Shown: one piece after another, positions 7,580 through 44,177 of the stretch
Layout: every line of letters starts with the position of its first letter
Numbering within the stretch: position 1 is the stretch's first letter
Program-made: the position numbers and the translations under genes
The notes under the pieces: model-generated
The model's input: the letters and a program-made list of their open reading frames with translations, nothing else
Told to the model about the DNA's origin: nothing
The model's database searches: none
DNA from: Prevotella sp.
GTDB lineage: Bacteria; Bacteroidota; Bacteroidia; Bacteroidales; Dysgonomonadaceae
DNA: 44,698 nt
Direction of reading: 5' to 3'
Assembly: GCA_031285905.1 (NCBI GenBank)
Contig: JAITVH010000027.1
Location: forward strand, 1 to 44,698

Positions 7580-8260
7580 TTATTCTTTTTCTGTATCGAT
7601 AGCTTTCCATACAAGGGCAGACAGAGCAGCACCAAGGAATGGGGCAACGATGAACAACCAAAGCTGTGCAAGGGCTTTCCCGCCTTCTATAGCGTCGAAT
7701 AAGGCAGGGCCAATGCTACGGGCAGGGTTGACAGATGTACCTGTGATAGGAATACATACAATGTGTACCAGCACCAAGGCAAGACCGATAGCCACACCGG
7801 CAAATTGGTTGTTTGCACCTTTGGAAGTTACGCCAAGCACAACCAATACAAAGATGAAAGTAAATACTGTCTCAGCGATGAAAGCTGTTACTACAGCACC
7901 TTCGGCGAAGCCGTTTGCACCTGTAAGTGTTGTGGTAGAACCCGAATCTTTAGCCAATATGTACAATATGGCTGAGCCGATAATCGCCCCGATGACCTGA
8001 AAGATCATATACATGGCTGCATCTTTGCCTGAAATCTTTTTAGATAGCAGCAAGCCTAATGTGATAGCGGGGTTGATATGGCACCCTGATACCTTTCCTA
8101 TTGTATATACCATTGCCAATACGGCCAAACCAAAAGCAAAAGCCACACCCAATGTACCCACGGACGCAAACGGTTGTCCTGCGCCGGCAAATACAGCAGC
8201 ACCACAACCCATGAGAACAAGAACCATCGTTCCGATCATCTCTGCCAAATACTTTTTCAT
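7580..8260 (-). CDS. aqpZ: Aquaporin Z-like water channel
   Basis: This 226-residue integral membrane protein has the internally duplicated six-helix MIP fold. Both pore NPA motifs are visible, in GCHINPAITLGLL (first half) and GTSVNPARSIGPALF (second half). The Arg after the second NPA is the selectivity-filter Arg. The first helix begins MKKYLAEMIGTMVLVLMGCG, standard for AqpZ, so the start is secure. The short NPA-flanking loops and normal length favour a water-specific aquaporin over a glycerol facilitator. The gene is monocistronic. A possible -7 element lies at 8376-8383 on the minus strand, which would leave a leader of about 110 nt. Confidence 0.94.
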   Translation of the reverse strand: MKKYLAEMIGTMVLVLMGCGAAVFAGAGQPFASVGTLGVAFAFGLAVLAMVYTIGKVSGCHINPAITLGLLLSKKISGKDAAMYMIFQVIGAIIGSAILYILAKDSGSTTTLTGANGFAEGAVVTAFIAETVFTFIFVLVVLGVTSKGANNQFAGVAIGLALVLVHIVCIPITGTSVNPARSIGPALFDAIEGGKALAQLWLFIVAPFLGAALSALVWKAIDTEKE

Positions 8261-8615
8261 GAAGTCTAAATTTTTATTATTAATAAATTAAGGAAATTCT
8301 TATAATGTGAGTAATATCGTATATAACGTTTCATCAATGATTGTGTTGAATGAATATATGTAAAATTTGTTATAGCAAATATATAAAATATTAGTAAATG
8401 GATTATGTTTTTGGATGAAAATGTGAAGTAATATTAATTAATATATTATTAAGGGGAATCGTAGGAGAATTTTTCATCTTTTTTTTTCGAATTTATCTAT
8501 AGGTTGTAGGGGCAGGTCTTGTGCCTGCCTGCAACAATCGGGCAACCACAAGGGATTGCCCCTACGGGAAACAATAACAGATAAATAACAATAAAAAAGA
8601 AAAAGAAAAAGAATT
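8261..8615. other. Intergenic region between aqpZ and the HTH gene: AT-rich leader plus a REP-like palindrome
   Basis: About 220 bp next to aqpZ is very AT-rich and holds only a candidate minus-strand -7 element (TATATTTG, 8376-8383). The rest holds the 60-bp REP-like palindrome at 8506-8565 and an A/G-rich run just before the ATG at 8616. No convincing gene is seen. Confidence 0.6.
8506..8565. repeat. REP-pair-like palindrome (GTAG-headed, CCCTTGTGG family), copy A
   Basis: The element starts GTAGGGGCAGG and ends GGATTGCCCCTAC. Its arms are imperfect inverted repeats sharing the core of the palindrome inside the RAYT gene at 39 kb (core CCACAAGGGATTGCCCCTAC in the right arm). The GTAG head before a G-rich stem is the known signature of REP elements moved by RAYT transposases. 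It lies 50 bp upstream of the HTH gene. Confidence 0.75.
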
Positions 8616-33777: not shown

Positions 33778-34941
33778 TTAAATTTTGTCCTTCTGTCCGA
33801 ATTGCATCAAATCCTGTCCTTTTAGTGCTGCTGCCACCAGGTCGGGTAATCTGTCAGGGGTGCAGGCAAAGCAGGCTATTCCAAGTTTACTGATTTCTTT
33901 TCCCAGATTCACGTCATAATCGGGTTTCCCACTATCCGAAAGGGCCAGAAGCGTAATCACTTTAACTCCTTCTTCATGCATTTCGGACAATCGGCGAAGC
34001 AATCCCTTTCTTACCCCTCCTTCATAAAGGTCGGAGATAAGGATAAACATCGTCTTACGTGGATTTTCGATCAAACCTTGGCAATAAGCTACCGATTTGT
34101 TTATATCCGTTCCTCCACCTAATTGCACACCAAAAAGCATATCCACAGGGTCTTGGCGACAAAGTTCTGTCAGGTCGGTTATCTCTGTATCAAACGCTAC
34201 CACATGAGTATCCAATGCAGGCATAGATGCGAAAATTGAGCCCATCACAGATGAATAGATGATGGAATCTGCCATCGAACCGCTTTGGTCTATATCGAGT
34301 ATTACTGTCCAGTTCTTTTGCTTCTGGGAACGCTCAAAGAAGTAGAATTTTTCGGGTATCAGCCGTTTTGTCTTTGTATCATAATTCTTCAAATTACGGT
34401 TGATAGTCCGTTTCCAATCAGTAGAGGCAAAATTGGCAATTGGAGAATGTGCCTTCTTATTTAATGCACCTGTAACAGCCCGTCGAAGGTCTTGTTCCAT
34501 ACGCTTCATTATTTCGTCCACAACACTCCTGACCAGTTCCCGGGCAGTCTCTTTCGACTTTTCAGGGATTTGCCCTTTCAGTGCCATTAGTGTACCCACC
34601 ATGGTGATGTCGGGTTTTACGTTCTTTAGTGTCTCGGGTTCGAATAATAGTTTTGTAAGCCCCTTGCGTTCAATGGCATCGGCCTGTATCACACTGACTA
34701 CATCCTGAGGGAAAAATGTACGTACATCGGTCAGCCATTTTGCCAGATTAGGCATCGATTTTCCCTTACCGCCCTGTTTTCCTCCCGAACCGGCACCACT
34801 TGTATCTCCATCATAAATAGCAGCCAGAGCAGCATCCATTAATGATTCCTGTTCGCTAAGGCCTACATTGCCCAGTGCACGCGTGTCTTCGCCCAGGATA
34901 AGGCGCCAACGGGTCATATTTTGTTTGTTTTCTTCTGTCAT
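33778..34941 (-). CDS. VWA-domain (MIDAS) protein, YehP-like partner of a MoxR ATPase
   Basis: The 387-residue cytoplasmic protein has a helical N-terminal half and a C-terminal von Willebrand A domain. The metal-ion-dependent adhesion site is complete: VILDIDQSGSMADS (D218-x-S220-x-S222), the Thr of LGGGTDINKS (T278) and the Asp of LISDLYEGG (D304). A GSGGKQGGKGKS linker lies near residues 50-62. VWA proteins of this kind work with MoxR AAA+ ATPases, which here lie about 5 kb upstream on the same strand. Length and architecture fit E. coli YehP (about 378 residues). It starts only 3 bp after the RAYT1 stop codon, so its expression depends on reading through the transposase gene. Family call strong; role inferred. 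Confidence 0.86.
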   Translation of the reverse strand: MTEENKQNMTRWRLILGEDTRALGNVGLSEQESLMDAALAAIYDGDTSGAGSGGKQGGKGKSMPNLAKWLTDVRTFFPQDVVSVIQADAIERKGLTKLLFEPETLKNVKPDITMVGTLMALKGQIPEKSKETARELVRSVVDEIMKRMEQDLRRAVTGALNKKAHSPIANFASTDWKRTINRNLKNYDTKTKRLIPEKFYFFERSQKQKNWTVILDIDQSGSMADSIIYSSVMGSIFASMPALDTHVVAFDTEITDLTELCRQDPVDMLFGVQLGGGTDINKSVAYCQGLIENPRKTMFILISDLYEGGVRKGLLRRLSEMHEEGVKVITLLALSDSGKPDYDVNLGKEISKLGIACFACTPDRLPDLVAAALKGQDLMQFGQKDKI

Positions 34942-34944
34942 AAT

Positions 34945-35505
34945 TTATGTGTAATAATCGTCTTTAATCCAATTCTTAGGATTTTCATAAATATATTCCG
35001 TTATATTCCGGTGCGATTCATCATTACGGATGATATGTTCGTAGTAATTACGTTGCCATATGGAATAACCGATTTGTTTGGTTATACCGATTTTGAAACC
35101 TCGGATAATTGCACCGATTGCTCCTGATTTACAATTTGGTCGTTGTTGTAGGGGTCGAATATTTTCGACCCGAATATCCTCTGAATTGTTCATACTATGT
35201 TTATCTTCACTATCGGGTCGAAAATATTCGACCCCTACAGAAGATGGCATAACGATTTCCAAAATCCCATGAATATGGTTGGGCATAATAACGAATTCGT
35301 GTAAAACAACGTTTTGGTAATGTCGCGGAATTTCAATCCAACAATCATATGCTATTTTTCCTGTATCATTCAATACCATTTCATCATTTATAACAGAACC
35401 AAACAAACATAGCTTATCTTTCGCACAAATAGTAACGAAATATAATCCTTCCTGCGAATAATTATAGCCATTTAGACGTATACTACGACGTTGGTTTGCC
35501 ATCAT
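34945..35505 (-). CDS. REP-associated tyrosine transposase (RAYT1), IS200-like Y1 family
   Basis: The 186-residue protein is a single-strand HUH-type transposase of the RAYT group. It has the N-terminal SQEGLYFVTICAKDKLCLFG signature, the HUH motif MPNHIHGI (His77, His79), and the catalytic-Tyr helix WQRNYYEHIIRND (Tyr154/155). Residues 90-120 are encoded by a perfect 26-bp inverted repeat pair (35148-35238) that looks like a GTAG-headed REP doublet. The gene is a compact single ORF with no obvious left or right ends of an IS, as usual for RAYTs. It sits inside the MoxR/VWA operon, 4 bp after the GNAT gene and 3 bp before the VWA gene. Intact, so possibly active. Confidence 0.88.
   Translation of the reverse strand: MMANQRRSIRLNGYNYSQEGLYFVTICAKDKLCLFGSVINDEMVLNDTGKIAYDCWIEIPRHYQNVVLHEFVIMPNHIHGILEIVMPSSVGVEYFRPDSEDKHSMNNSEDIRVENIRPLQQRPNCKSGAIGAIIRGFKIGITKQIGYSIWQRNYYEHIIRNDESHRNITEYIYENPKNWIKDDYYT
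35148..35238. repeat. GTAG-headed REP pair inside the RAYT1 reading frame
   Basis: The left arm, 35148-35173 (GTAGGGGTCGAATATTTTCG then ACCCGA), is the perfect 26-bp reverse complement of the right arm, 35213-35238. Each arm is itself a hairpin (GGGTCGAA-tatt-TTCGACCC). A 39-bp loop separates them. This is the layout of a REP doublet (BIME), read through as residues 90-120 of the transposase. Confidence 0.85.
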
Positions 35506-35509
35506 GAGA

Positions 35510-35914
35510 TTACGTCCAAAGACTTGTTATAAACATTGGGACTTTATCTTCGCCTGCTTCGAAACCGTTATGCTTGTAAAATTCTGTCTCTTTCTCATAA
35601 GCAATCAGTACAATACGCAGGTATTCCTCATATCTGATTTTTATAATATTTACCAGTTCCTTGCCAATACCCATTTTGTGATATTCGGGGTTGATTAACA
35701 AATAATGTACATATGCAGTCATAATACCATCATCTAAGGCATTGATCAATCCCACAAGTTTGTCGCCATCCCAAGCCGTGAGAACTGTAGATGAGTTCTT
35801 CATTGCTACTACCAGTTTGTTCGGATAATGTCCCGATGACCAGTCGACAGATAAGAATAACTCCTGTAAATCTTCCGGTCTGAAATCTTTAATATCTTTG
35901 TATGTAATATTCAT
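35510..35914 (-). CDS. GNAT family N-acetyltransferase
   Basis: The 134-residue protein is a single GNAT domain. It has the VDWSSGHYPNKLVVAMKNS start, the acetyl-CoA strand YVHYLLINPEYHKMGIGKEL with the (Q/R)-x-x-G-x-G/A pyrophosphate loop (KMGIGK), and the late helix YEKETEFYKHNGFEAGED. It transfers an acetyl group from acetyl-CoA to an amine; the acceptor is not known. It belongs to the cassette between the DUF5682 and VWA genes, 10 bp after the 57-aa membrane-protein gene and 4 bp before RAYT1, so it is co-transcribed with the MoxR/VWA operon. It could be a passenger unrelated to the core system. Confidence 0.86.
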   Translation of the reverse strand: MNITYKDIKDFRPEDLQELFLSVDWSSGHYPNKLVVAMKNSSTVLTAWDGDKLVGLINALDDGIMTAYVHYLLINPEYHKMGIGKELVNIIKIRYEEYLRIVLIAYEKETEFYKHNGFEAGEDKVPMFITSLWT

Positions 35915-35924
35915 TGTTTAAATA

Positions 35925-36098
35925 TTATTTATTATTTTTCCTGGAACTGTATAACAACCAGAATGCTAGTCCACCAGAAATGAAAAATGCGGCCAGCTTT
36001 TCATATAATTCGGGGGGAGACGACTTGAATGCTTGAGTTAGCAGTATTAATGCAATCAAAGCTAAAAATACGCCAAGAGATAATTTCAATATTCTCAT
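35925..36098 (-). CDS. Small membrane protein, 57 aa, translationally coupled
   Basis: Reading the minus strand from the ATG at 36098 gives a 57-residue protein, MRILKLSLGVFLALIALILL then TQAFKSSPPELYEKLAAFFI, ending SGGLAFWLLYSSRKNNK. It has two hydrophobic segments (about residues 5-21 and 36-51) around a short polar loop and a basic C-terminal tail, as in small inner-membrane proteins. Its ATG overlaps the TGA of the UDG-like gene in an ATGA arrangement, so it is translationally coupled, which argues strongly that it is real. The GNAT gene follows 10 bp later. No family recognised. It could be an effector, a channel-like protein or a membrane anchor for the preceding protein. Confidence 0.7.
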   Translation of the reverse strand: MRILKLSLGVFLALIALILLTQAFKSSPPELYEKLAAFFISGGLAFWLLYSSRKNNK

Positions 36099-36631
36099 TT
36101 TGATGTAATTTCATTCATTGCTTCGGCAAATGATTTTTTAAATTTTTGTTGATTTCCTGTTGAGGGGAAATCAATCCTTTTATTTATTATGTTAAATTTT
36201 GCTTTTAAGATATGATAAATTGTATCGTAAACATTGACCTTTATTAAGATAATAGGTGTTTCTTTATCACATATTTTTGAAAGCTTTCCAGATAACTTTT
36301 TTATGCTGTTTATTTTGCTTTCAGAGTTTATTGATATAGGTAATTCAAATAAATCAAGAAGATAATATCCATTTTTTTTTATTTGATTTAAGATGCTCTT
36401 TTTTACTTCTGGATGACGTTTGTATTTTTTTATATATATGTCTTTTAATCCTGGATATAAGATATCTATAATTCCTAAAAATAAATAGTCCTTTTCTTTT
36501 ACATTTTCATAATAAAAGAATCTATTTAATGAATCAGGAGGAGCTTCTGCAATAAAAATCGCTTTTACTTTCTCTGGCTTATATTTTATTCTAGCTTCTT
36601 CTAGTTTTTTTAATAATACTTCTTTATCCAT
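36095..36631 (-). CDS. Uracil-DNA-glycosylase-superfamily-like protein (tentative)
   Basis: The 178-residue protein opens with helix LLKKLEEARIKY then the strand-loop KAIFIAEAPPDSLNRFFYYE, which recalls motif A (active-site loop) of the UDG superfamily. Near the C-terminus RIDFPSTGNQQKFKKSFAEAM recalls the motif-B region with Pro-Ser and a following basic helix. Between them are a YLFLGIIDILYPGL helix and KKNGYYLLDLFELPI. The AT content is clearly above that of the neighbouring core genes, suggesting separate acquisition. It starts 20 bp after the DUF5682 gene and overlaps the small membrane-protein gene by 4 bp. The fold call is by motif resemblance only; it could be an unrelated nucleotide-binding protein. 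Confidence 0.5.
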   Translation of the reverse strand: MDKEVLLKKLEEARIKYKPEKVKAIFIAEAPPDSLNRFFYYENVKEKDYLFLGIIDILYPGLKDIYIKKYKRHPEVKKSILNQIKKNGYYLLDLFELPISINSESKINSIKKLSGKLSKICDKETPIILIKVNVYDTIYHILKAKFNIINKRIDFPSTGNQQKFKKSFAEAMNEITSK

Positions 36632-36651
36632 AATTATTTCATATTTAAAGA

Positions 36652-38955
36652 TTAAAAGTCAAAGTCAAAATCAAAATCAAAATCATTCAGTTCATCTAAC
36701 TTCTCTGTCTCAGTTTCTGTCAGTTCCGATTGTAAAATCTCGGCAGTATTCTCAGCTCCCGTTCCCCAGATATCGCCTAAAAGCTCGGCAATGCTATTCT
36801 TTTGATTCGGTTCGAACTCGCCAAATGCCCTGCGCAGGAAGACGACCGAACGGAAAAATTCATCATCATCCAGTTGTTCGACATATTTGTCCAGTTCCTT
36901 CCATAAAGGGACGCGGGATAATAAAGCATAACGGTTTCGTCCCGAAAGGCCTTCGAACCAGCCGGCACCCAAATCGGCAGGTACGCCCGGAGACAAACGT
37001 CTCGACACTTCTTTCGCACAATCGTCCTCTGTTGCCAGATTATGTTCTAATAAGATGGAGAAAGCCACGCCCGACAGTTTCGTATTCAGATCGTCACGCC
37101 ATGCCAGATGATGCAATTCTTTCTGCCATGTTTCTACATCTACGGTCTCGTATTGTTGCTGGGAGATCAGTTCCATTACATTGATTCCCTGCGTTATGCT
37201 TGTTGCTGCCTTGTCGTCACAAGAAGCTGCATCGATCAACAATAATGATGAGCGTAAAAATAACTGCTGTAAAATGGGTATTAATGGTTCGAGATTAAAC
37301 TGACGTAAATCACCATATTGAATTAATATTGAGAGTTCGTGCGCAGCATTAGCCGTTTCCTTAAAGTTGTTGGAATCAACGAGTAGCCGTTGCAATGTGC
37401 TTAATGCATTATCAAAAATATTGGTGAGATGGCATTCACAAGCCAGACGGATTATTTTAGCCGCCTGAGAAACATCTGTACATTCCTGTAATTGTTCTTT
37501 CAACTCGAAAGCGGCAGCTATTTCCAGTGTTTCTCCTTTCAGATTAGCTTCCACAATTTCAATCTCAACTTCGGGAGTCCATTTCAATACCCATTTTTCG
37601 GCCCAGGTGGCACTATCCTGTGATACTTTTATCTGTTCGGCGAAATGAATATTCAATATTCTGAGACGATGGAGAAAAGTGGAACGGTTGAGGTCGATAA
37701 ATGCGGCTTCCTTTGTCTTTACTTTCAGGTTCTCACGTAAGTCCAGTGTTAACTCTTGTGCGACAGCCGATTTATAGTTTGTGAGCTTTAACCGTTTAAG
37801 TTCCTGATTCATATCTTCCTGAACAGGAGTTTGACTAACGCCTTCCGGCAGGCTACCAATAGCCGTACCTATATCTACCATGTTGATAGCTTCGGCTACA
37901 GGCGATAGTTCTCCGCCTCCGAAGCAGGTTACGACTGCATCATGCAGGTCTTTTAGTACAGGCATAGAACCCGAACGCATAGAGGTCAGGGCATTTGCTA
38001 ACCTAACTGCTTCGATTACGCTGGCAGAAGATGCGTTGTGTCCCTGTTTACGCAAGGCCTTAGCCACTTTCGATAAATAGACGGCTGATAAATCTTCCAG
38101 CCTGTCTTTCTGTATAGCGTTCCACATCAGTTCGAAGTAGTATGGCGCATTGTTTCCTGCTCCATAGCCTGTACGACTGCTCAGGCGGAGATAGGAATAA
38201 GGCATCAATGTAAGTTGCGATGTAACTGTCGGTATGTTTTTTAGTTCACTATCGCTCATTGAGGGTAATTCGGGACTGATACCCAATACATGATATGCTC
38301 CTACAATGATAACTATTTCCTTAGGTTTGAAACCTTCATCAATTGCCCGTCGTATTTCCCTGCGCATATGTGCCTCACGGATAAGATTATATGAAAAATC
38401 GTATGGAACAGCTTTGTATTCCCGATCCACAACCATTTCTCTCATTTGTCCCGATTGGTAGGCCAGTCCTTCACGAAAAGAACCGATATTCAGATTATGC
38501 TCGAAATTTCGTTCCCAGTAGCTTTCATAGTTATCTTCATCGTACTGCCGGGCAACTTTATCATATAGTCCGTTGTGAAAGGAGTAGAATCCATCAGCCG
38601 CTTCATTTGCCTCCCTGTTCCGTTCCTGCCTTAGTTTGAGCATTATATTGGTTGGCAAATCGATGAAACGCACATCCAGCTTCTTTTTCACTCCCCAACA
38701 GATAGCCTGATACTCGGGCGAATAGGCAGCAAATGGATATAGTACAGTTTCTATCGGCAATTCGGTAGTATATGCCAATAGTGCAATAGGTGGCTTTACC
38801 CCTTTGCCTGCTATATCGGGTATAATGTCTGTGGCGTCCGATGGCCCTTCTATCAGGATGCATTTTGGTTTCTTCTCTTCCAGATATTTTATCAGGTGAT
38901 AAGATGCTCCGGGAGAAAGGTGGCGTACGCCGAATATGTTTAGCTTTTCATTCAT
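36652..38955 (-). CDS. DUF5682 family protein, YehM-like component of a MoxR/VWA system
   Basis: The 767-residue protein begins KLNIFGVRHLSPGASYHLIKYL, then PKCILIEGPSDAT, a layout I recognise for DUF5682. The N-terminal part (about residues 1-240) looks like an enzyme-like domain related in style to TraB/TIKI or erythromycin-esterase proteins: the GVRH His, the IEGP Glu, YKAVPYDFSYNLIREAHMR, and VIIVGAYHVLG. The middle and C-terminal parts are long helical repeats. The last residues are an acidic-aromatic tail, NDFDFDFDFDF, coded by a hexanucleotide repeat. Length (767) fits E. coli YehM (about 759). It lies 10 bp after RAYT2. Function not established. Confidence 0.8.
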   Translation of the reverse strand: MNEKLNIFGVRHLSPGASYHLIKYLEEKKPKCILIEGPSDATDIIPDIAGKGVKPPIALLAYTTELPIETVLYPFAAYSPEYQAICWGVKKKLDVRFIDLPTNIMLKLRQERNREANEAADGFYSFHNGLYDKVARQYDEDNYESYWERNFEHNLNIGSFREGLAYQSGQMREMVVDREYKAVPYDFSYNLIREAHMRREIRRAIDEGFKPKEIVIIVGAYHVLGISPELPSMSDSELKNIPTVTSQLTLMPYSYLRLSSRTGYGAGNNAPYYFELMWNAIQKDRLEDLSAVYLSKVAKALRKQGHNASSASVIEAVRLANALTSMRSGSMPVLKDLHDAVVTCFGGGELSPVAEAINMVDIGTAIGSLPEGVSQTPVQEDMNQELKRLKLTNYKSAVAQELTLDLRENLKVKTKEAAFIDLNRSTFLHRLRILNIHFAEQIKVSQDSATWAEKWVLKWTPEVEIEIVEANLKGETLEIAAAFELKEQLQECTDVSQAAKIIRLACECHLTNIFDNALSTLQRLLVDSNNFKETANAAHELSILIQYGDLRQFNLEPLIPILQQLFLRSSLLLIDAASCDDKAATSITQGINVMELISQQQYETVDVETWQKELHHLAWRDDLNTKLSGVAFSILLEHNLATEDDCAKEVSRRLSPGVPADLGAGWFEGLSGRNRYALLSRVPLWKELDKYVEQLDDDEFFRSVVFLRRAFGEFEPNQKNSIAELLGDIWGTGAENTAEILQSELTETETEKLDELNDFDFDFDFDF
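36656..36684. repeat. Hexanucleotide repeat coding the (Asp-Phe)n tail of the DUF5682 protein
   Basis: About four TCAAAA/TCAAAG units encode alternating Phe and Asp at the C-terminus. Unit gain or loss would keep the frame. Confidence 0.75.
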
Positions 38956-38965
38956 CTATTTTTAT

Positions 38966-39571
38966 TCAAATATAATAGTCGTCTGTTTGCCAGTACTTAG
39001 GATTCTCGTGGATATATTCTGTTATTTTCTGATATGAATCATCGTTTCGGATGATGTGTTCGTAATAGTTGCGCTGCCATAGTTTGTTCCTAAATGATGG
39101 CCAATCATAGTTTTTTACACCTAGTATGTATTGGTTTGTTGTTATCGATTTGAATGCTCCAATTATATCACCGAGTGATTTGTCATTTTTTGTAGTAGGG
39201 GCAATCCCTTGTGGTTGCCCGTTTCCCATATTGCGGCGGGTACCCACAAGGGGCATCCCTACAAATGCCTGAACATTACCAGTAAATTGTATAATGCCAT
39301 GAAAATGATTTGGCATTATACAATATTCATGTAATTCGATATTTATGAAATATTTCTTCAATGTTAACCATTGGTTTTTAATCATCTTTCCTGCTTCATT
39401 CAACACCATCTCATCATCATCAATATTTCCAAATAAACAAACTTTGTCTTTCACGCAAATGGTAACAAAATATAATCCCTCTTGCAAATAATCATATCCA
39501 TAAAAACGGATTGTTTTCCGTTGAGGTAGATCTTTATCTTTAATTAAATTCATTTTTCTGTAACAACTCAT
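38966..39571 (-). CDS. REP-associated tyrosine transposase (RAYT2), IS200-like Y1 family
   Basis: The 201-residue protein is a close relative of RAYT1 (similar N-terminal LQEGLYFVTICVKDKVCLFG, HUH motif MPNHFHGI with His89 and His91, and tyrosine helix WQRNYYEHIIRND with Tyr169/170). The two C-termini (ITEYIHENPKYWQTDDYYI here) are about three-quarters alike, and the DNA is similarly diverged, so they come from separate insertions. Residues about 104-126 (FVGMPLVGTRR to QGIAPTT) are encoded by a palindromic REP pair at 39195-39262. It lies in the MoxR/VWA operon between the MoxR and DUF5682 genes, 10 bp before the latter. An internal ATG six codons in is an alternative start. Intact. Confidence 0.88.
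   Translation of the reverse strand: MSCYRKMNLIKDKDLPQRKTIRFYGYDYLQEGLYFVTICVKDKVCLFGNIDDDEMVLNEAGKMIKNQWLTLKKYFINIELHEYCIMPNHFHGIIQFTGNVQAFVGMPLVGTRRNMGNGQPQGIAPTTKNDKSLGDIIGAFKSITTNQYILGVKNYDWPSFRNKLWQRNYYEHIIRNDDSYQKITEYIHENPKYWQTDDYYI
39195..39262. repeat. GTAG-headed REP pair inside the RAYT2 reading frame (CCCTTGTGG family)
   Basis: The 68-bp element begins GTAGGGGCAATCCCTTGTGG and ends CAAGGGGCATCCCTAC; its arms form an imperfect inverted repeat. Similar elements lie at 8506, 28901 and 39590. It is in the same place in the protein as the REP pair of RAYT1. Confidence 0.8.
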
Positions 39572-39589
39572 ATAACGACTTCGTGGTTT

Positions 39590-39665
39590 GCCTGTAGAGG
39601 TAGAACCTTGTGCTCGCCTGTCTTCTTATTAGTGCGGGCAACCACAAGGGATTGCCCCTACAGGC
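39590..39665. repeat. REP-pair-like palindrome (CCCTTGTGG family), upstream of RAYT2
   Basis: Outer ends GCCTGTAG and CTACAGGC are exact inverted repeats. The right arm CCACAAGGGATTGCCCCTAC is the same as in copy A at 8.5 kb; the left arm is degenerate. It lies just upstream of the RAYT2 start codon, in the 196-bp gap after the MoxR gene. Confidence 0.75.
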
Positions 39666-39767
39666 AAAGCCCTGAACTTATATAATATTATCAAATCACA
39701 ATTTGATAGCAAAGTTCCAAACTCTTTAACCAAAACATTATTGAATTTCAAATTTTCAATTCTTTTC

Positions 39768-40865
39768 TTACCCATTTATATCACTACAAGTATTATACAA
39801 TCCGCGCCATGAAGCACCACGTTTTTTCATTACGTTTTCGAGGTATTCTTTCCAAACTATCTTATCCTTATCTTCATCTTTCACCACCGCACCTTGTAGT
39901 CCGGCAGCCATATCTTCATCGGTAATAGTACCATCTCCGAAACTGGCAGCAAGAGCCATGCTGTTTGTGATAAGAGAAATAGCTTCGGCAGTAGAGATAA
40001 CTCCGCTAGGTGATTTCAGTTTCTGTTTTTCGTCCAGTGTTATACCCTGGCGAAGTTCGCGGAAGATGGTAACAATCTTTTCGATGGCTTCATTAGTTGG
40101 CAGGTTCGCTTTTAAGCGATAATTATTTGATATTTCAGCCACACGCTTGGTTACAATAGATACTTCTGTTTCAAGGTTGGCAGGAGCTGGAAGGACGATT
40201 ATATTAAAACGCCTTTTCAGTGCTGACGACATATCATTAACGCCCCTGTCTCTTGTATTGGCTGTAGCAATAATGGAGAAACCGCGTTTTGCAGGCAATT
40301 CTTTTGCCAGTTCGGATATTGCAATTGTTTTCTCGGACATGATGGAAATAAGGGCGTCCTGAACTTCGGATGCACAGCGGGATATTTCCTCAAAGCGGGC
40401 GACACTTCCTGTTTCCATTGCCCTATAGATTGGGCTTTTTATTAAAGCCTCGTTTGATGGGCCATTAGCAAGAAGCATGGCATAGTTCCATGAGTAACGG
40501 ATAGCTTCTTCACTTGTTCCGGCTGTACCTTGTATCACCTTTGCCGAGTCGCCGCAGATGGCCGCAGTTAGGTTCTCAGATAACCAAGATTTTGCAGTCC
40601 CCGGCTCTCCAATTAGTAACAATGAGCGGTCGGTCAAGAGGGTGGCAATAGCTATTTCCACAAGACGGTTGTGGCCTATATATTTTGGCGTGATATCGAT
40701 TCCGTTTGCTTTTCCTCCAACAACGAATTTAAGAACAGCTTTTGGCGATAATTGCCAACCGATAGGTTTTTCTTCTTTCTTATCTTCTTCTTTTAATGCT
40801 TCCAGTTCGTGTGCGTATAATAACTCGGCTGGTAACCGTAGTACATCTTCTTTTTTTTGAGTCAT
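39768..40865 (-). CDS. MoxR-type AAA+ ATPase, YehL-like
   Basis: The 365-residue protein has an N-terminal extension (about 60 residues, Glu/Lys-rich) and one AAA+ module: Walker A GEPGTAKS (86-93), a Walker-B region ARFEEISR (156-163) with Glu-Glu in place of the more usual Asp-Glu, sensor-1 IIATANTRDRG (Asn203), and arginine-finger region SALKRRF (R218/R219). MoxR ATPases act as chaperones that remodel or insert cofactors into target proteins together with VWA proteins. This one fits the YehL subgroup in length and context. It begins 7 bp after the HEAT gene and is followed by RAYT2. Target protein unknown; the DUF5682 protein is a good candidate. Confidence 0.88.
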   Translation of the reverse strand: MTQKKEDVLRLPAELLYAHELEALKEEDKKEEKPIGWQLSPKAVLKFVVGGKANGIDITPKYIGHNRLVEIAIATLLTDRSLLLIGEPGTAKSWLSENLTAAICGDSAKVIQGTAGTSEEAIRYSWNYAMLLANGPSNEALIKSPIYRAMETGSVARFEEISRCASEVQDALISIMSEKTIAISELAKELPAKRGFSIIATANTRDRGVNDMSSALKRRFNIIVLPAPANLETEVSIVTKRVAEISNNYRLKANLPTNEAIEKIVTIFRELRQGITLDEKQKLKSPSGVISTAEAISLITNSMALAASFGDGTITDEDMAAGLQGAVVKDEDKDKIVWKEYLENVMKKRGASWRGLYNTCSDING

Positions 40866-40872
40866 ATTTTTA

Positions 40873-42717
40873 TTATTTATGATTATTTTCTATTTCTTCC
40901 GCGATATCCTCATATATCTGCAACGGGTTTTTCTTATATAGTCCCCTGTATTTAGTAGCATATTCTTTTGGGAATTGAGTCCAGAATCCAGTGTTTTTGA
41001 GCCAGTTCAACCCATAGAAATAGCTGCGGAGTGCATATTTAGTCATTGTGGTGTAAATAACCTCGAAACGATTCTCTATTTCTCTGTTCATTATCAGTTT
41101 AAATACACTTGCCTGATCGTTTGGCATTGTCTTTCCTGTAAGGGATATTAGCAGGTCATCCAGTTTTTTGCTTTTAGGTTCACAGGCGCTAATGAGGCGC
41201 AGAGCCCTGTCGTGCTCATGCTTCCATTTATATTTATTGATGGTAAATAATTCATAGAGGACATCTTTCCACCGCTTATCTATCTTATCTACATCTACTT
41301 TTGTAGTATAATTTCTGGAGTAAGTATAATAATAGTCTTCGTCATCGGTATATGCTGTATATAAATGATCTATCGTAACAATATTGCGTTTGAACTGGGG
41401 ACTGAAAATATCAAACATCTTTTCTTTCGGATATTCGGCTTCTATGGCATCATAGAAATAGTGTCCCCATAAAGAACGTTTCCAATTGGTTTCGGGAATC
41501 TTATCCATATTGGTTTCATAGAACTCTATAACCTGGGCTTTTGAGAAAGATTTAAGCCCTTTGATAATTTCCTGAGTAATGTTTGATGCTGTATATTCAA
41601 GCAAACTCTTTTTGGTGGAGATCAGGTCATTGTACTCCTTGTTGGTCAATACCCTGCTAAAGAATTCAATAACCTCTGGCCTGTTCTTATTTCCAAATAT
41701 TTCAAGCTCGTAGCTTAACCGTTCCAATTTGTCAGAGAGCACTTTATCTTTTTCATCCTTATTCAGTGCAATGAATTCTTCGAACGACTTAACCACCTGA
41801 TCAAAAACTTCCTGAAAAAAAAATGGAAGCTTCGAGGAAGCTAGTGCCGTGACTATTAATGGTAGGTTTGTTTTATTCTTATTATTTAGATATATGTCTT
41901 TGAGCTTTTCAATACTTGTTTTTGTTCCTAATTTGGCTAATGCCTTATAAGCAGCTTCTCTTACCTGTTTGTTCTTATCATCTGCCAGTTTTATAATCAG
42001 TTCTTCGTTAGCCGGATTGTCACTCATTATCAGGATGGCTTCCGATTGTAAGGTTGGCAATGACGATGACATGATAGTATCTACCATATCATAGATTTTT
42101 AAATACCCAAATTTGTGGAGCAGCCGCAACCTTCTGATGTTTTCTGTCTTATCTTCGTATTTGAAATTCTTAATCAGGAATGGAATCATTGGCTTGCCTA
42201 CCTTGGGGATAATTGTCTTTTCCACATAGTCGCACAATTCGGCATATTTGTCGCCCAATGCTATATCCAGGTATTGATAAGTGCGGGAGTCGTTAAAAAC
42301 ATTCCGTTCCAATGCATCTTTCAGTATTTCCAGTCTACCCGAATTACTTGTGGTAAGGGCTTGCATTACAGGTTTAAGCTGAAGGTAAGAATATTCGGTA
42401 TTCACTTCGTCAATTGGCACATTGGGCGTTTGTTCCTTTACCTCTACATCACTCTCGATCAATTCGCCCTGTGTATAAAGAACAGAATAGAGTAAGGAGG
42501 AAATGCTCATCAGTTTATCAGACGATTGTTGTGTGTCTGTAATTAATAATTCTTCTATATCTGTTGCCAATTTTTTGAATATGGGAGCTTTCTCACCCAG
42601 CTTGTTTAATACGGGTACATGTTTTTGCAGACGTGGATCCCCTTTTGCAAATTTGCTCCCAGCGATAAATAATCGGTTTATTTCTTGTTGAAGGTCATAT
42701 AATGGTTGTAGTCTCAT
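40873..42717 (-). CDS. HEAT-repeat protein of the MoxR/VWA operon
   Basis: The 614-residue protein is almost entirely helical. Residues about 205-290 contain HEAT-like units, for example SSLPTLQSEAILIMSDNPAN and KNKQVREAAYKALAKLGTK. A long N-terminal helical region (1-200) and a C-terminal domain rich in Tyr/Trp (DEDYYYTYSRNYTTKVDVDK, LYELFTINKYKWKHEHDRALRL) have no family I know. HEAT arrays are scaffolds that bind proteins or nucleic acids. It lies between the SWIM gene (17-bp gap) and the MoxR gene (7-bp gap), so it is a core member. E. coli has a HEAT/DUF4132-type gene (yehI) near yehL, which may correspond. Confidence 0.72.
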   Translation of the reverse strand: MRLQPLYDLQQEINRLFIAGSKFAKGDPRLQKHVPVLNKLGEKAPIFKKLATDIEELLITDTQQSSDKLMSISSLLYSVLYTQGELIESDVEVKEQTPNVPIDEVNTEYSYLQLKPVMQALTTSNSGRLEILKDALERNVFNDSRTYQYLDIALGDKYAELCDYVEKTIIPKVGKPMIPFLIKNFKYEDKTENIRRLRLLHKFGYLKIYDMVDTIMSSSLPTLQSEAILIMSDNPANEELIIKLADDKNKQVREAAYKALAKLGTKTSIEKLKDIYLNNKNKTNLPLIVTALASSKLPFFFQEVFDQVVKSFEEFIALNKDEKDKVLSDKLERLSYELEIFGNKNRPEVIEFFSRVLTNKEYNDLISTKKSLLEYTASNITQEIIKGLKSFSKAQVIEFYETNMDKIPETNWKRSLWGHYFYDAIEAEYPKEKMFDIFSPQFKRNIVTIDHLYTAYTDDEDYYYTYSRNYTTKVDVDKIDKRWKDVLYELFTINKYKWKHEHDRALRLISACEPKSKKLDDLLISLTGKTMPNDQASVFKLIMNREIENRFEVIYTTMTKYALRSYFYGLNWLKNTGFWTQFPKEYATKYRGLYKKNPLQIYEDIAEEIENNHK

Positions 42718-42734
42718 CGTTCTGTTTTTTTAAA

Positions 42735-44177
42735 TTAATAAAGCAATCTTATTATTTTCTCAGGCGTGATTAATGACATTGGCTGTGCCGACAATAGCCC
42801 TGTCTGCACATCATTATTAATCATCACTGTCAATGCAAATCCTTCGGGTTGAGATGGAAGGATAGCTTTCAGATTGGTAGCCGAAGATACATTTTGTTCC
42901 TTTATATCTTTTAGTGTCAGTTTATTCCCCTGTTTATCTTCCACCACAAGATTTTCTCCATTCAGATAAGCCTTGTTTAAAGAAATAAGTACTACGGGAT
43001 TTTTATCCATTAATGGGTTCTTTATTGTATTTTTTACAGACTTGACGGTTTCAGTATAATTATCAGAAGAGAAAGCCAATATGGATGCCAGATCTTTCAT
43101 TTCGGCTTTACGTTCTTTCACCGCTTCGGGTTCCCAACGCACGCGCGGATTCTGGTCTCCCGGGTATATAAATAATTCTTTTAATTGTAATACATCAAAA
43201 GAACTGTTATCTTCCTTTATGTATTTTGCAGCTTTGTATGGGCGAAAATTCTTTGTCTTATAGATTTTACCCGTTTTGAGGTTCATCCAGATACCTTCGT
43301 CCACATATTCTTTACGCGCCGGATTGTCATAGCTGTTAAATGATAACTGGATCAGTTCAGCATTTTCTTCATACAGGCCATATTGCATCAGTTCTGTTAA
43401 TTTCCAGATATACCCAATTTGTTCTTCGATAGCAGAGTTAAGCTCAGGTTCGGCTTCAGGATCTTCTTTTCGTTTATTCAGGTAATCTGTACTTTTTTTC
43501 AGTAGAGCCGAGATATAATTTATCTGGTCGATTACATGTGTATATTCTTCGTTCTCTACATCATCCAGTTCGAGGAGCAGGTTATTAAATGCTGTTTGTA
43601 TACCATTGATATAATAGTTACCCAATTCCTTTACCTGCACTTGCAATGTCTTCCTTATTTTGGCATCCACAGAAGATAAGCCTGTTTGTACAATGTCTTT
43701 CAATATTTTCCCGGCTATTTCTATACCATTCAGCTGGGCATCAGCTTTTTTCGTGAATGCAGCTTTGTTTACCTTCTTTGGTTTATCGGCCTTTTCCTTA
43801 ATACTCTCTTTCTCCTGAGTCTTTTTTTCCTGTTTCTTTTCTATCTTCTCCCGTTTTGACAGAATATCGTCGGGAATATCGGCAATTGAAAAAGCTCCAC
43901 TATTAGCCTCGTAAGAATAAAGTAAGCCTAAAGCATGTTTGCATGGAAATTGACGACTCGGACAATTGCATCTGAATACAGGGTTATGTTCATCCATATA
44001 GTCGGCTGAACAATAATAAGGGTTTTTTCCGCTTCCTGCACATTCTCCCCAAATGAGATTTTTGTCGGCTGAAATCTTTAAGTTCGAGAATTTGTTCTTT
44101 TTTACAAGGTCACGCCCGTTTTTCGCTGCATCGGCATTAGGAGCCATTTCTTCGATTTTCTTTTGTGTAATTTCCAT
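42735..44177 (-). CDS. SWIM zinc-finger protein, YehQ-like
   Basis: The 480-residue protein is the first gene of the operon. Residues 66-85 (NPVFRCNCPSRQFPCKHALG) hold a SWIM zinc finger, C70-x-C72-x6-C79-x-H81, typically a DNA- or protein-binding module. A Lys/Glu-rich flexible linker (about 108-150, KREKIEKKQEKKTQEKESIK) follows, then a long helical and mixed C-terminal region (ITPEKIIRLLY at the end) that is not recognised. The same family occurs next to MoxR/VWA genes in other bacteria. A -7 element (44219-44226 minus) lies 42 bp upstream, so this gene probably carries the operon promoter. Family call good; what the finger binds is unknown. Confidence 0.85.
   Translation of the reverse strand: MEITQKKIEEMAPNADAAKNGRDLVKKNKFSNLKISADKNLIWGECAGSGKNPYYCSADYMDEHNPVFRCNCPSRQFPCKHALGLLYSYEANSGAFSIADIPDDILSKREKIEKKQEKKTQEKESIKEKADKPKKVNKAAFTKKADAQLNGIEIAGKILKDIVQTGLSSVDAKIRKTLQVQVKELGNYYINGIQTAFNNLLLELDDVENEEYTHVIDQINYISALLKKSTDYLNKRKEDPEAEPELNSAIEEQIGYIWKLTELMQYGLYEENAELIQLSFNSYDNPARKEYVDEGIWMNLKTGKIYKTKNFRPYKAAKYIKEDNSSFDVLQLKELFIYPGDQNPRVRWEPEAVKERKAEMKDLASILAFSSDNYTETVKSVKNTIKNPLMDKNPVVLISLNKAYLNGENLVVEDKQGNKLTLKDIKEQNVSSATNLKAILPSQPEGFALTVMINNDVQTGLLSAQPMSLITPEKIIRLLY

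What the first reader, a model, noticed from the sequence alone, without database searches (positions are those of the whole stretch)
33778..44177. A Bacteroidota YehL-type MoxR/VWA system: SWIM + HEAT + MoxR AAA+ + DUF5682 + VWA in one operon
Five large minus-strand genes encode a SWIM zinc-finger protein, a HEAT array, a MoxR AAA+ ATPase with a Walker-B EE variant, a DUF5682 protein with an enzyme-like N-terminus, and a VWA protein with a complete MIDAS. From family knowledge, E. coli yehL (MoxR), yehM (about 759 aa), yehP (VWA, about 378 aa) and yehQ (SWIM) form the same kit with very similar lengths, and no function is established for it. This operon adds a HEAT scaffold between SWIM and MoxR. 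My inference: an ATP-driven chaperone-like complex in which MoxR plus VWA remodels the DUF5682 effector, with SWIM/HEAT as the targeting part; a stress or phage-conflict role is possible.
Basis: partly seen in the sequence, partly recalled or inferred. Interest (0 to 1): 0.82.

Follow-up and report, generated by a model that had tools for sequence, protein, structure and literature searches.

The report
ATP-driven machine around a TraB/Tiki-like enzyme
A five-gene bacterial kit, related to the E. coli genes yehL, yehM, yehP and yehQ whose job is unknown, appears to pair an ATP-driven protein-remodelling motor with a protein whose front end has the fold and key residues of TraB/Tiki/erythromycin-esterase hydrolases, which makes an unknown operon directly testable.

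Summary
In detail: SWIM, HEAT, MoxR, DUF5682 and VWA genes lie as stated; four small ORFs interrupt them. The kit is the YehL type: MoxR, VWA and DUF5682 match YehL, YehP and YehM along their length, SWIM matches YehQ's N-terminal domain. It is not a local invention: 63 of 80 loci (the closest 80 of at least 586) hold all five, 58 in the window's order. A HEAT or DUF5691 protein fills the slot in most loci opened; DUF4132 (YehI) accompanies E. coli-like ones. In 101 relatives the genes come together or not at all, one cut contig apart. New here: DUF5682 residues 1-231 form a TraB/Tiki/ChaN/Ere-type domain: E 2e-8 with two TraB proteins; the 14 best VIA rows are of that superfamily; motif histidines and glutamate invariant in 72 of 72. 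Best reading: a MoxR-VWA motor dedicated to a TraB/Tiki-type hydrolase, with SWIM-HEAT as recognition module. Activity, client and trigger are not shown. Neighbouring genes give no consistent sign of a phage role.

The parts
42735..44177 (-). SWIM zinc-finger protein (480 aa); C70-x-C72-x6-C79-x-H81
   Evidence: PF04434; the four ligands >=95% conserved in a 62-row alignment
40873..42717 (-). HEAT-repeat protein (614 aa), the fastest-evolving part; fills the slot of DUF5691
   Evidence: PF13646; hhalign with an 8-row DUF5691 alignment Prob 70, E 4e-5 over 82 central columns; mean pairwise identity 58.6% in 7 same-genus genomes against 78-93% for the other four
39768..40865 (-). MoxR AAA+ ATPase of the YehL type (365 aa); Walker A GEPGTAKS, Walker B FEE
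   Evidence: PF07728 6e-36; hhalign with YehL Prob 100, E 8e-66
36652..38955 (-). DUF5682 protein (767 aa), homologue of YehM
   Evidence: PF18934 2e-148; AlphaFold2 pLDDT 89.3, pTM 0.79
38263..38955 (-). TraB/Tiki/ChaN/Ere-superfamily domain of DUF5682 (residues 1-231); motifs GxRH12, E36, R193-E194, GAYH222
36694..37665 (-). helical, HEAT-like C-terminal part of DUF5682 (residues 431-754)
36655..36690 (-). acidic-aromatic C-terminal tail (LNDFDFDFDFDF), candidate ligand of a partner
   Evidence: pLDDT under 50 at residues 759-767; F/Y/L-x-F/L motif in the last 10 residues in 78 of 80 loci
33778..34941 (-). VWA (CoxE-like) protein (387 aa), homologue of YehP, complete MIDAS, conserved N-terminal RWRLILG
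   Evidence: PF05762 5e-46; hhalign with YehP E 2e-63
38966..39571 (-). inserted Y1_Tnp/RAYT-like ORF (201 aa), not part of the kit
   Evidence: PF01797 6.7e-7; NCBIfam REP_Tyr_transpos 2.5e-18, 66 bits, under the 80-bit cut-off
36095..36631 (-). inserted 178-aa orphan ORF, no family
35510..35914 (-). inserted GNAT acetyltransferase ORF
   Evidence: PF13673 1.7e-11
34945..35505 (-). second inserted RAYT-like ORF (186 aa)
   Evidence: NCBIfam REP_Tyr_transpos 1.8e-12, 47 bits, under cut-off; PF01797 only E 0.023

Best explanation
A cytoplasmic AAA+ machine built around a TraB/Tiki-type hydrolase. SHOWN by sequence and models: the five families form one conserved kit; DUF5682 has an N-terminal TraB/Tiki/ChaN/Ere-type domain whose motif residues (H12, E36, R193-E194, H222) are invariant, and a C-terminal helical arm ending, in this branch, in a disordered D-F-rich tail; MoxR and VWA keep their ATPase and MIDAS residues. 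INFERRED: MoxR (a ring, as other MoxR proteins) and VWA form a motor whose dedicated client is DUF5682. VWA holds DUF5682 through its MIDAS, possibly by an aspartate of the tail. ATP hydrolysis remodels DUF5682 between an off and an on (or unassembled and assembled) state, so that it hydrolyses a peptide or ester bond in a target. The SWIM plus HEAT/DUF5691 pair is a separable recognition module that docks the machine on that target or on a nucleic acid; the HEAT part evolves fastest, as a target-facing part would. In the E. coli-like branch DUF4132 (YehI) probably takes that role.
Confidence: 0.45

Rival explanations
1. Metal or cofactor maturation: MoxR-VWA inserts a metal or haem into DUF5682 (or into a client held by it), as NorQD does and as recalled for CoxE-bearing CO-dehydrogenase systems; the TraB/ChaN-like pocket is a ligand site, not a hydrolase site.
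Against: No molybdenum, haem or respiratory enzyme family is among the 25 commonest of 154 families in 104 neighbouring proteins. In PMC8533742 moeA and moeB did not change. The invariant set reaches beyond simple metal ligands.
Confidence: 0.2
2. DUF5682 is an adaptor, not the client: its helical arm and an inactive TraB-like domain recruit another protein, which MoxR-VWA remodels; SWIM-HEAT joins in recruitment.
For: A large part of DUF5682 is helical repeat. The nearest structural relative is a subunit of a respiratory complex.
Against: Strict conservation of the motif residues in 72 of 72 proteins from several phyla is more than an adaptor needs.
Confidence: 0.2
3. A biological-conflict (anti-phage or similar) system analogous to the MoxR-vWA ternary systems, with DUF5682 as effector and the fast-evolving HEAT protein as sensor.
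For: Patchy in the window's genus (8 of 25 genomes listed, own included) and rare in its phylum (8 of 395); HEAT evolves fastest; flanking ORFs of same-genus genomes look different by eye except for the pair G003/G015; type I restriction genes follow the kit in Iodobacter, a PDDEXK nuclease in Hymenobacter, and a PDDEXK_13 nuclease sits inside it in G003; MoxR-vWA systems with effectors are described (PMC7159879, passages).
Against: yehM is near-universal in E. coli (5,284 of 5,426); no defence family recurs in more than 5 of 104 neighbours (25 of 115 families shown, no background set); no operon protein has a strong PADLOC match; bpMoxR score below its cut-off and no beta-propeller family among the operon proteins.
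Confidence: 0.14

Closest known systems
E. coli yehI-yehK-yehL-yehM-yehP-yehQ (YehL subfamily of MoxR ATPases)
   Same: MoxR, DUF5682 and VWA are full-length homologues; the SWIM domain is shared; the genes are adjacent.
   Different: Order differs (SWIM last, not first); DUF4132 protein YehI and small YehK instead of the HEAT protein; YehQ resembles the window SWIM protein only at the N-terminal domain; no D-F-rich tail in YehM.
SWIM-DUF5691-MoxR-DUF5682-VWA operons (Rhizobium, Methylosinus, Deinococcus, Hymenobacter)
   Same: Same five slots in the same order.
   Different: DUF5691 in the HEAT slot, only distantly similar to the window HEAT protein; SWIM-DUF5691 fused in Hymenobacter; small ORFs between MoxR and DUF5682 in Deinococcus and Hymenobacter; VWA in two frames in Methylosinus.
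TraB/PrgY, Tiki, ChaN, erythromycin esterase superfamily
   Same: Fold, order of motifs and motif residues of the DUF5682 N-domain.
   Different: GxRH rather than the Ere ExH; joined to a long helical arm and mostly encoded beside a MoxR/VWA motor.
NorQ-NorD, RavA-ViaA and other MoxR-VWA pairs
   Same: One MoxR ATPase with one VWA protein (papers seen as listing and passages).
   Different: Other MoxR subfamilies; other clients; no TraB-like partner was met in the passages read.
MoxR-vWA-VMAP / beta-propeller ternary conflict systems
   Same: MoxR plus vWA plus further parts (PMC7159879, passages).
   Different: No VMAP or beta-propeller family found among the operon proteins; PF20030 scores 25.8, under its 27 cut-off.

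Membership tests
YehL-type MoxR/VWA kit (yehLMPQ) | MoxR ATPase homologous to YehL | tested here: met
   hhalign Prob 100, E 8e-66, 353 columns
YehL-type MoxR/VWA kit (yehLMPQ) | VWA protein homologous to YehP with complete MIDAS | tested here: met
   E 2e-63, 366 columns; DxSxS, T278, D304 conserved; YehP has DQSGS and RWRLILG too
YehL-type MoxR/VWA kit (yehLMPQ) | DUF5682 protein homologous to YehM | tested here: met
   both PF18934: window 2e-148, YehM 2e-98
YehL-type MoxR/VWA kit (yehLMPQ) | SWIM protein homologous to YehQ | tested here: inconclusive
   both carry PF04434; E 7e-15 over 93 columns with a 6-row alignment led by YehQ, no match to YehQ alone
YehL-type MoxR/VWA kit (yehLMPQ) | DUF4132 partner (YehI) | tested here: not met
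   no DUF4132 among the operon proteins; the HEAT family does not match YehI (E 0.35)
TraB/Tiki/ChaN/Ere superfamily (DUF5682 residues 1-231) | common core fold | tested here: met
TraB/Tiki/ChaN/Ere superfamily (DUF5682 residues 1-231) | GxxH, Glu after strand 2, Arg-acid motif, C-terminal GxxH | tested here: met
   aligned with TraB; H12, E36, R193, E194, H222 invariant in 72 of 72
TraB/Tiki/ChaN/Ere superfamily (DUF5682 residues 1-231) | hydrolase activity | not testable with these tools
   needs purified protein
Pfam TraB_PrgY_gumN (PF01963) | score above the curated cut-off | tested here: not met
   13.5 bits against 26.8; Streptomyces DUF5682 11.5 bits
DUF5691 (PF18944) | Pfam match of the window HEAT protein | tested here: not met
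   no PF18944 match up to E 1; distant profile match E 4e-5 over 82 columns
bpMoxR ternary conflict systems | MoxR of the bpMoxR family with VMAP/beta-propeller partner | tested here: not met
   PF20030 25.8 bits, cut-off 27; no propeller family among the operon proteins

The most novel reading that the evidence does not exclude
A widespread bacterial 'gated hydrolase': an ATP-driven MoxR-VWA ring that switches on a cytoplasmic TraB/Tiki-type protease or esterase (DUF5682/YehM), gripping it in this branch by a disordered D-F-rich tail, with an interchangeable recognition module (SWIM plus HEAT, DUF5691 or DUF4132) choosing the target. It would be a regulated hydrolysis system outside Clp, Lon, FtsH, HslUV and the proteasome.
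Probability: 0.25. Interest if true: 0.85.

Novelty: new variant of a known kind. Interest (0 to 1): 0.62.

Why it matters
yehM is in nearly every E. coli genome searched (5,284 of 5,426), and no function of yehL, yehM, yehP or yehQ was met in the papers searched here, beyond mentions such as yehM mutations under copper and a butanol-tolerance paper that names yehQ (listing only). Placing YehM/DUF5682 in the TraB/Tiki/Ere superfamily names an active site, so the operon can be tested with point mutants in a laboratory strain. It would also add a putative hydrolase to the clients of MoxR-VWA motors, and give the TraB/Tiki superfamily an ATPase-coupled bacterial branch.

Tried and rejected
Defence system: PADLOC on nine operon proteins gave only weak matches. 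Of 183 neighbouring ORFs picked from 47 of 80 loci I scanned 104, chosen by hand: 154 Pfam families, 25 shown, the commonest a response-regulator domain in 5 of 104; YebC 4, Hsp33 3, RtcB 3, an AbiEii-like AAA domain 3. PADLOC gave 115 families, 25 shown, none in more than 5 of 104; the strongest single ones are PDC-M37B 3e-36, mad3 7e-31 and DolB 7e-28. No background set was scanned, so enrichment is neither shown nor excluded.

DNA-damage control: no perfect CTGT-N8-ACAG site in the 26-kb E. coli stretch, one 2-mismatch RDRM site near the SWIM start in Deinococcus taeanensis. The D. radiodurans DUF4132 gene DRA0166 is in the DdrO regulon (PMC8533742, passages), but I did not see its neighbourhood, so nothing is built on it.

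TraB link by GumN-type proteins: 15 of 30 fetched loci could be used (plus-strand ORFs only); E 0.02-0.04, not significant; the L144 protein, cut short at its first Met, ranked 19 of 320. It became significant only with PrgY-type TraB. In one search the TraB side was a 2-row alignment and the background single sequences, so that control is not quite like for like; one search is. Foldseek gave no PDB match under 0.001. In VIA rows 1-14, two entries (6a7h, 6a8j) are titled only 'bacterial protein toxins'; I count them by their residue numbering, that of RRSP; 2qgm by its title, that of BcR135.

HEAT against DUF4132: no match. A first small DUF5691 alignment gave E 0.003, a larger one 4e-5; single DUF5691 proteins 0.005 to 0.48, best of 104 background 0.016. 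HEAT repeats resemble each other, so descent is likely, not proven.

Tail: strict F-[DEG]-F in 76 of 80, looser F/Y/L-x-F/L in 78 of 80; the misses are the L063 fusion and L078. The L063 fusion could be an assembly or deletion product.

Solved structures: no convincing sequence relative of DUF5682 in the PDB.

Rows dropped: AlphaFold alignment A2 used 59 sequences (window plus 58 of 75 loci of suitable length, of 80); A3 used 57. Family alignments used 62 SWIM, 67 HEAT, 74 MoxR and 73 VWA rows within length limits. Paper hits dropped: PMC8940909 (a medium name).
Full report
WHAT IS THERE. The MoxR ATPase keeps Walker A (GEPGTAKS), an FEE Walker B and an ATAN sensor-like motif; E. coli YehL has the same (motif names recalled). 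The VWA keeps the whole MIDAS, the SWIM protein its CxCx6CxH ligands. The closest named relatives of DUF5682 are from Tannerella, Capnocytophaga, Prevotellaceae and Dysgonamonadaceae (69-79% identity), so the window is taken as Bacteroidota.

IT IS A KIT. Eight of 101 related genomes have MoxR, DUF5682 and VWA; seven of these also have HEAT and SWIM; the eighth (G004) is a fragmented genome whose 5-kb contig ends inside MoxR; the other 93 have none at the limits used (DUF5682 E 1e-3, MoxR 1e-40, VWA 1e-20, HEAT and SWIM 1e-10). Of the 17 incomplete loci, twelve have less than 4 kb of sequence before DUF5682; L106 is a SWIM-HEAT fusion; L063 is a DUF5682-VWA fusion without detected SWIM or HEAT; L056 and L057 (Rhodopirellula) lack SWIM and HEAT nearby; L029 (Capnocytophaga) has DUF5682 alone. 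In Capnocytophaga and in same-genus genome G024 a close VWA homologue (85% and 95% identical) lies elsewhere in the genome (the other parts were not sought in Capnocytophaga). An even draw of 395 genomes of the phylum gave 8 with DUF5682, own included. Of the seven others four have SWIM-DUF5691-MoxR-DUF5682-VWA; three do not within about 17 kb: DUF5682 alone, DUF5682 with VWA, DUF5682 with MoxR.

WHICH KIT. In E. coli K-12 the order is yehI (DUF4132), yehK, yehL (MoxR), yehM (DUF5682), yehP (VWA), yehQ (SWIM). MoxR, VWA and DUF5682 match their E. coli counterparts along their length; the SWIM proteins share the N-terminal domain. The YehL subfamily of MoxR proteins is established in print (PMC3893208, passage). 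Rhizobium, Deinococcus, Methylosinus and Hymenobacter have SWIM-DUF5691-MoxR-DUF5682-VWA, in Methylosinus with VWA in two frames; Fusobacterium has a HEAT-type kit. So the HEAT slot is widespread; the window's HEAT protein is distantly similar to DUF5691 over central repeats (E 4e-5). DUF4132 accompanies the kit in all five E. coli-like loci that I opened (L010, L016-L019, two of them E. coli).

HOW THE PARTS GO TOGETHER. Natural fusions join DUF5682 with VWA (Streptomyces, 1257 aa; one Paenibacillus, 1187 aa) and SWIM with DUF5691 or HEAT (Hymenobacter, 1009 aa; Holdemania, 1053 aa). The Hymenobacter SWIM and the Holdemania HEAT matches lie under the Pfam cut-off but are 181 and 135 bits by tblastn with seeds of the kit. 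In G012 SWIM-HEAT is transcribed away from MoxR-DUF5682-VWA. This suggests two modules: SWIM-HEAT and MoxR-DUF5682-VWA. Among seven same-genus genomes the HEAT protein diverges fastest (mean pairwise identity 58.6%; SWIM 78.4, DUF5682 83.2, VWA 87.1, MoxR 92.6; 21 pairs each, 15 for VWA).

THE TAIL. The window's DUF5682 ends in an acidic-aromatic tail (LNDFDFDFDFDF), pLDDT under 50 from residue 759. Such a tail is present in 78 of 80 loci of this branch and is lost in the L063 fusion. It is a candidate ligand for the VWA MIDAS, which by general knowledge of VWA domains takes an acidic residue. It is not seen in the E. coli-like and DUF5691-type proteins examined, so it cannot be the only mode of binding.

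MECHANISM. Best reading (0.45): MoxR and VWA form a motor dedicated to DUF5682, a putative hydrolase; SWIM-HEAT (or DUF5691, or DUF4132) is the recognition part. The parts and residues are shown; binding, ATP-driven activation and hydrolysis are inferred. Rivals: metal or cofactor maturation (0.20), DUF5682 as adaptor (0.20), a conflict system (0.14). The conflict reading has some support (patchiness in the genus, fast HEAT, restriction-type genes beside the kit in Iodobacter and Hymenobacter and a PDDEXK_13 nuclease inside it in G003). Against it, no neighbour family recurs, and in E. coli yehM is nearly universal: 5,284 of 5,426 genomes with a match, 5,166 with at least 80% of the gene.

NOVELTY. 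The kit is known as a set of unnamed genes and the MoxR subfamily has a name; the assignment of DUF5682/YehM to the TraB/Tiki superfamily was not met in print: no paper in the held library contains 'DUF5682', none holds MoxR, VWA and 'SWIM zinc finger' together, and the one paper with MoxR and 'TraB family' is an iron-response study seen only in the listing. The library lacks most subscription journals, so earlier notice elsewhere is possible. I file it as a new variant of a known kind.

Noticed in passing
window 38966-39571 and 34945-35505; L022 9642-10205; L024 7653-8222: RAYT-like ORFs in the operon carry REP-like palindromic sequence in frame in variable linkers: 39195-39221 (inside the ORF) is the exact reverse complement of 39635-39661 (upstream of it), and 35147-35173/35213-35239 form a 27-nt perfect hairpin inside the other ORF; L024 has a 25-nt copy inside (8067-8091) and one downstream (8325-8349, 96%); L022 a 17-nt hairpin (88%); the L023 copy shows none.
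   Followed up: partly
between MoxR and DUF5682, and between DUF5682 and VWA, in same-genus genomes (L021, L022, L024-L026, window; L023 at the first junction): Two junctions of the operon hold different extra genes from genome to genome: RAYT-like ORFs, a DUF2314 protein, a PDDEXK_13 nuclease, a TonB_C protein, a weak BetR-like match, a GNAT with a 178-aa orphan, or nothing.
   Followed up: partly
L020 (MT835988.1): An unverified 'Bacteriophage sp.' scaffold encodes MoxR-DUF5682-VWA next to ORFs that look bacterial to me; it is probably a bacterial contig filed as phage.
   Followed up: no
L064, L067, L089, downstream of VWA: Hsp33, a redox-regulated chaperone, lies directly after the VWA gene in three loci of unnamed bacteria.
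   Followed up: no
L084 and L097 (Lachnospiraceae): Two HEAT genes in tandem between SWIM and MoxR.
   Followed up: no
L019 (Agrobacterium vitis) and L017 (Streptomyces): DUF4132 genes occur at other positions of the kit: between DUF5682 and VWA in Agrobacterium, before MoxR (with a further large protein between) in Streptomyces.
   Followed up: no
L015 11247-12382 (Methylosinus plasmid): The VWA gene is unannotated and its matches lie in two reading frames, so it may be broken.
   Followed up: no
window 36095-36631: A 178-aa ORF without any Pfam match of meaningful score.
   Followed up: no
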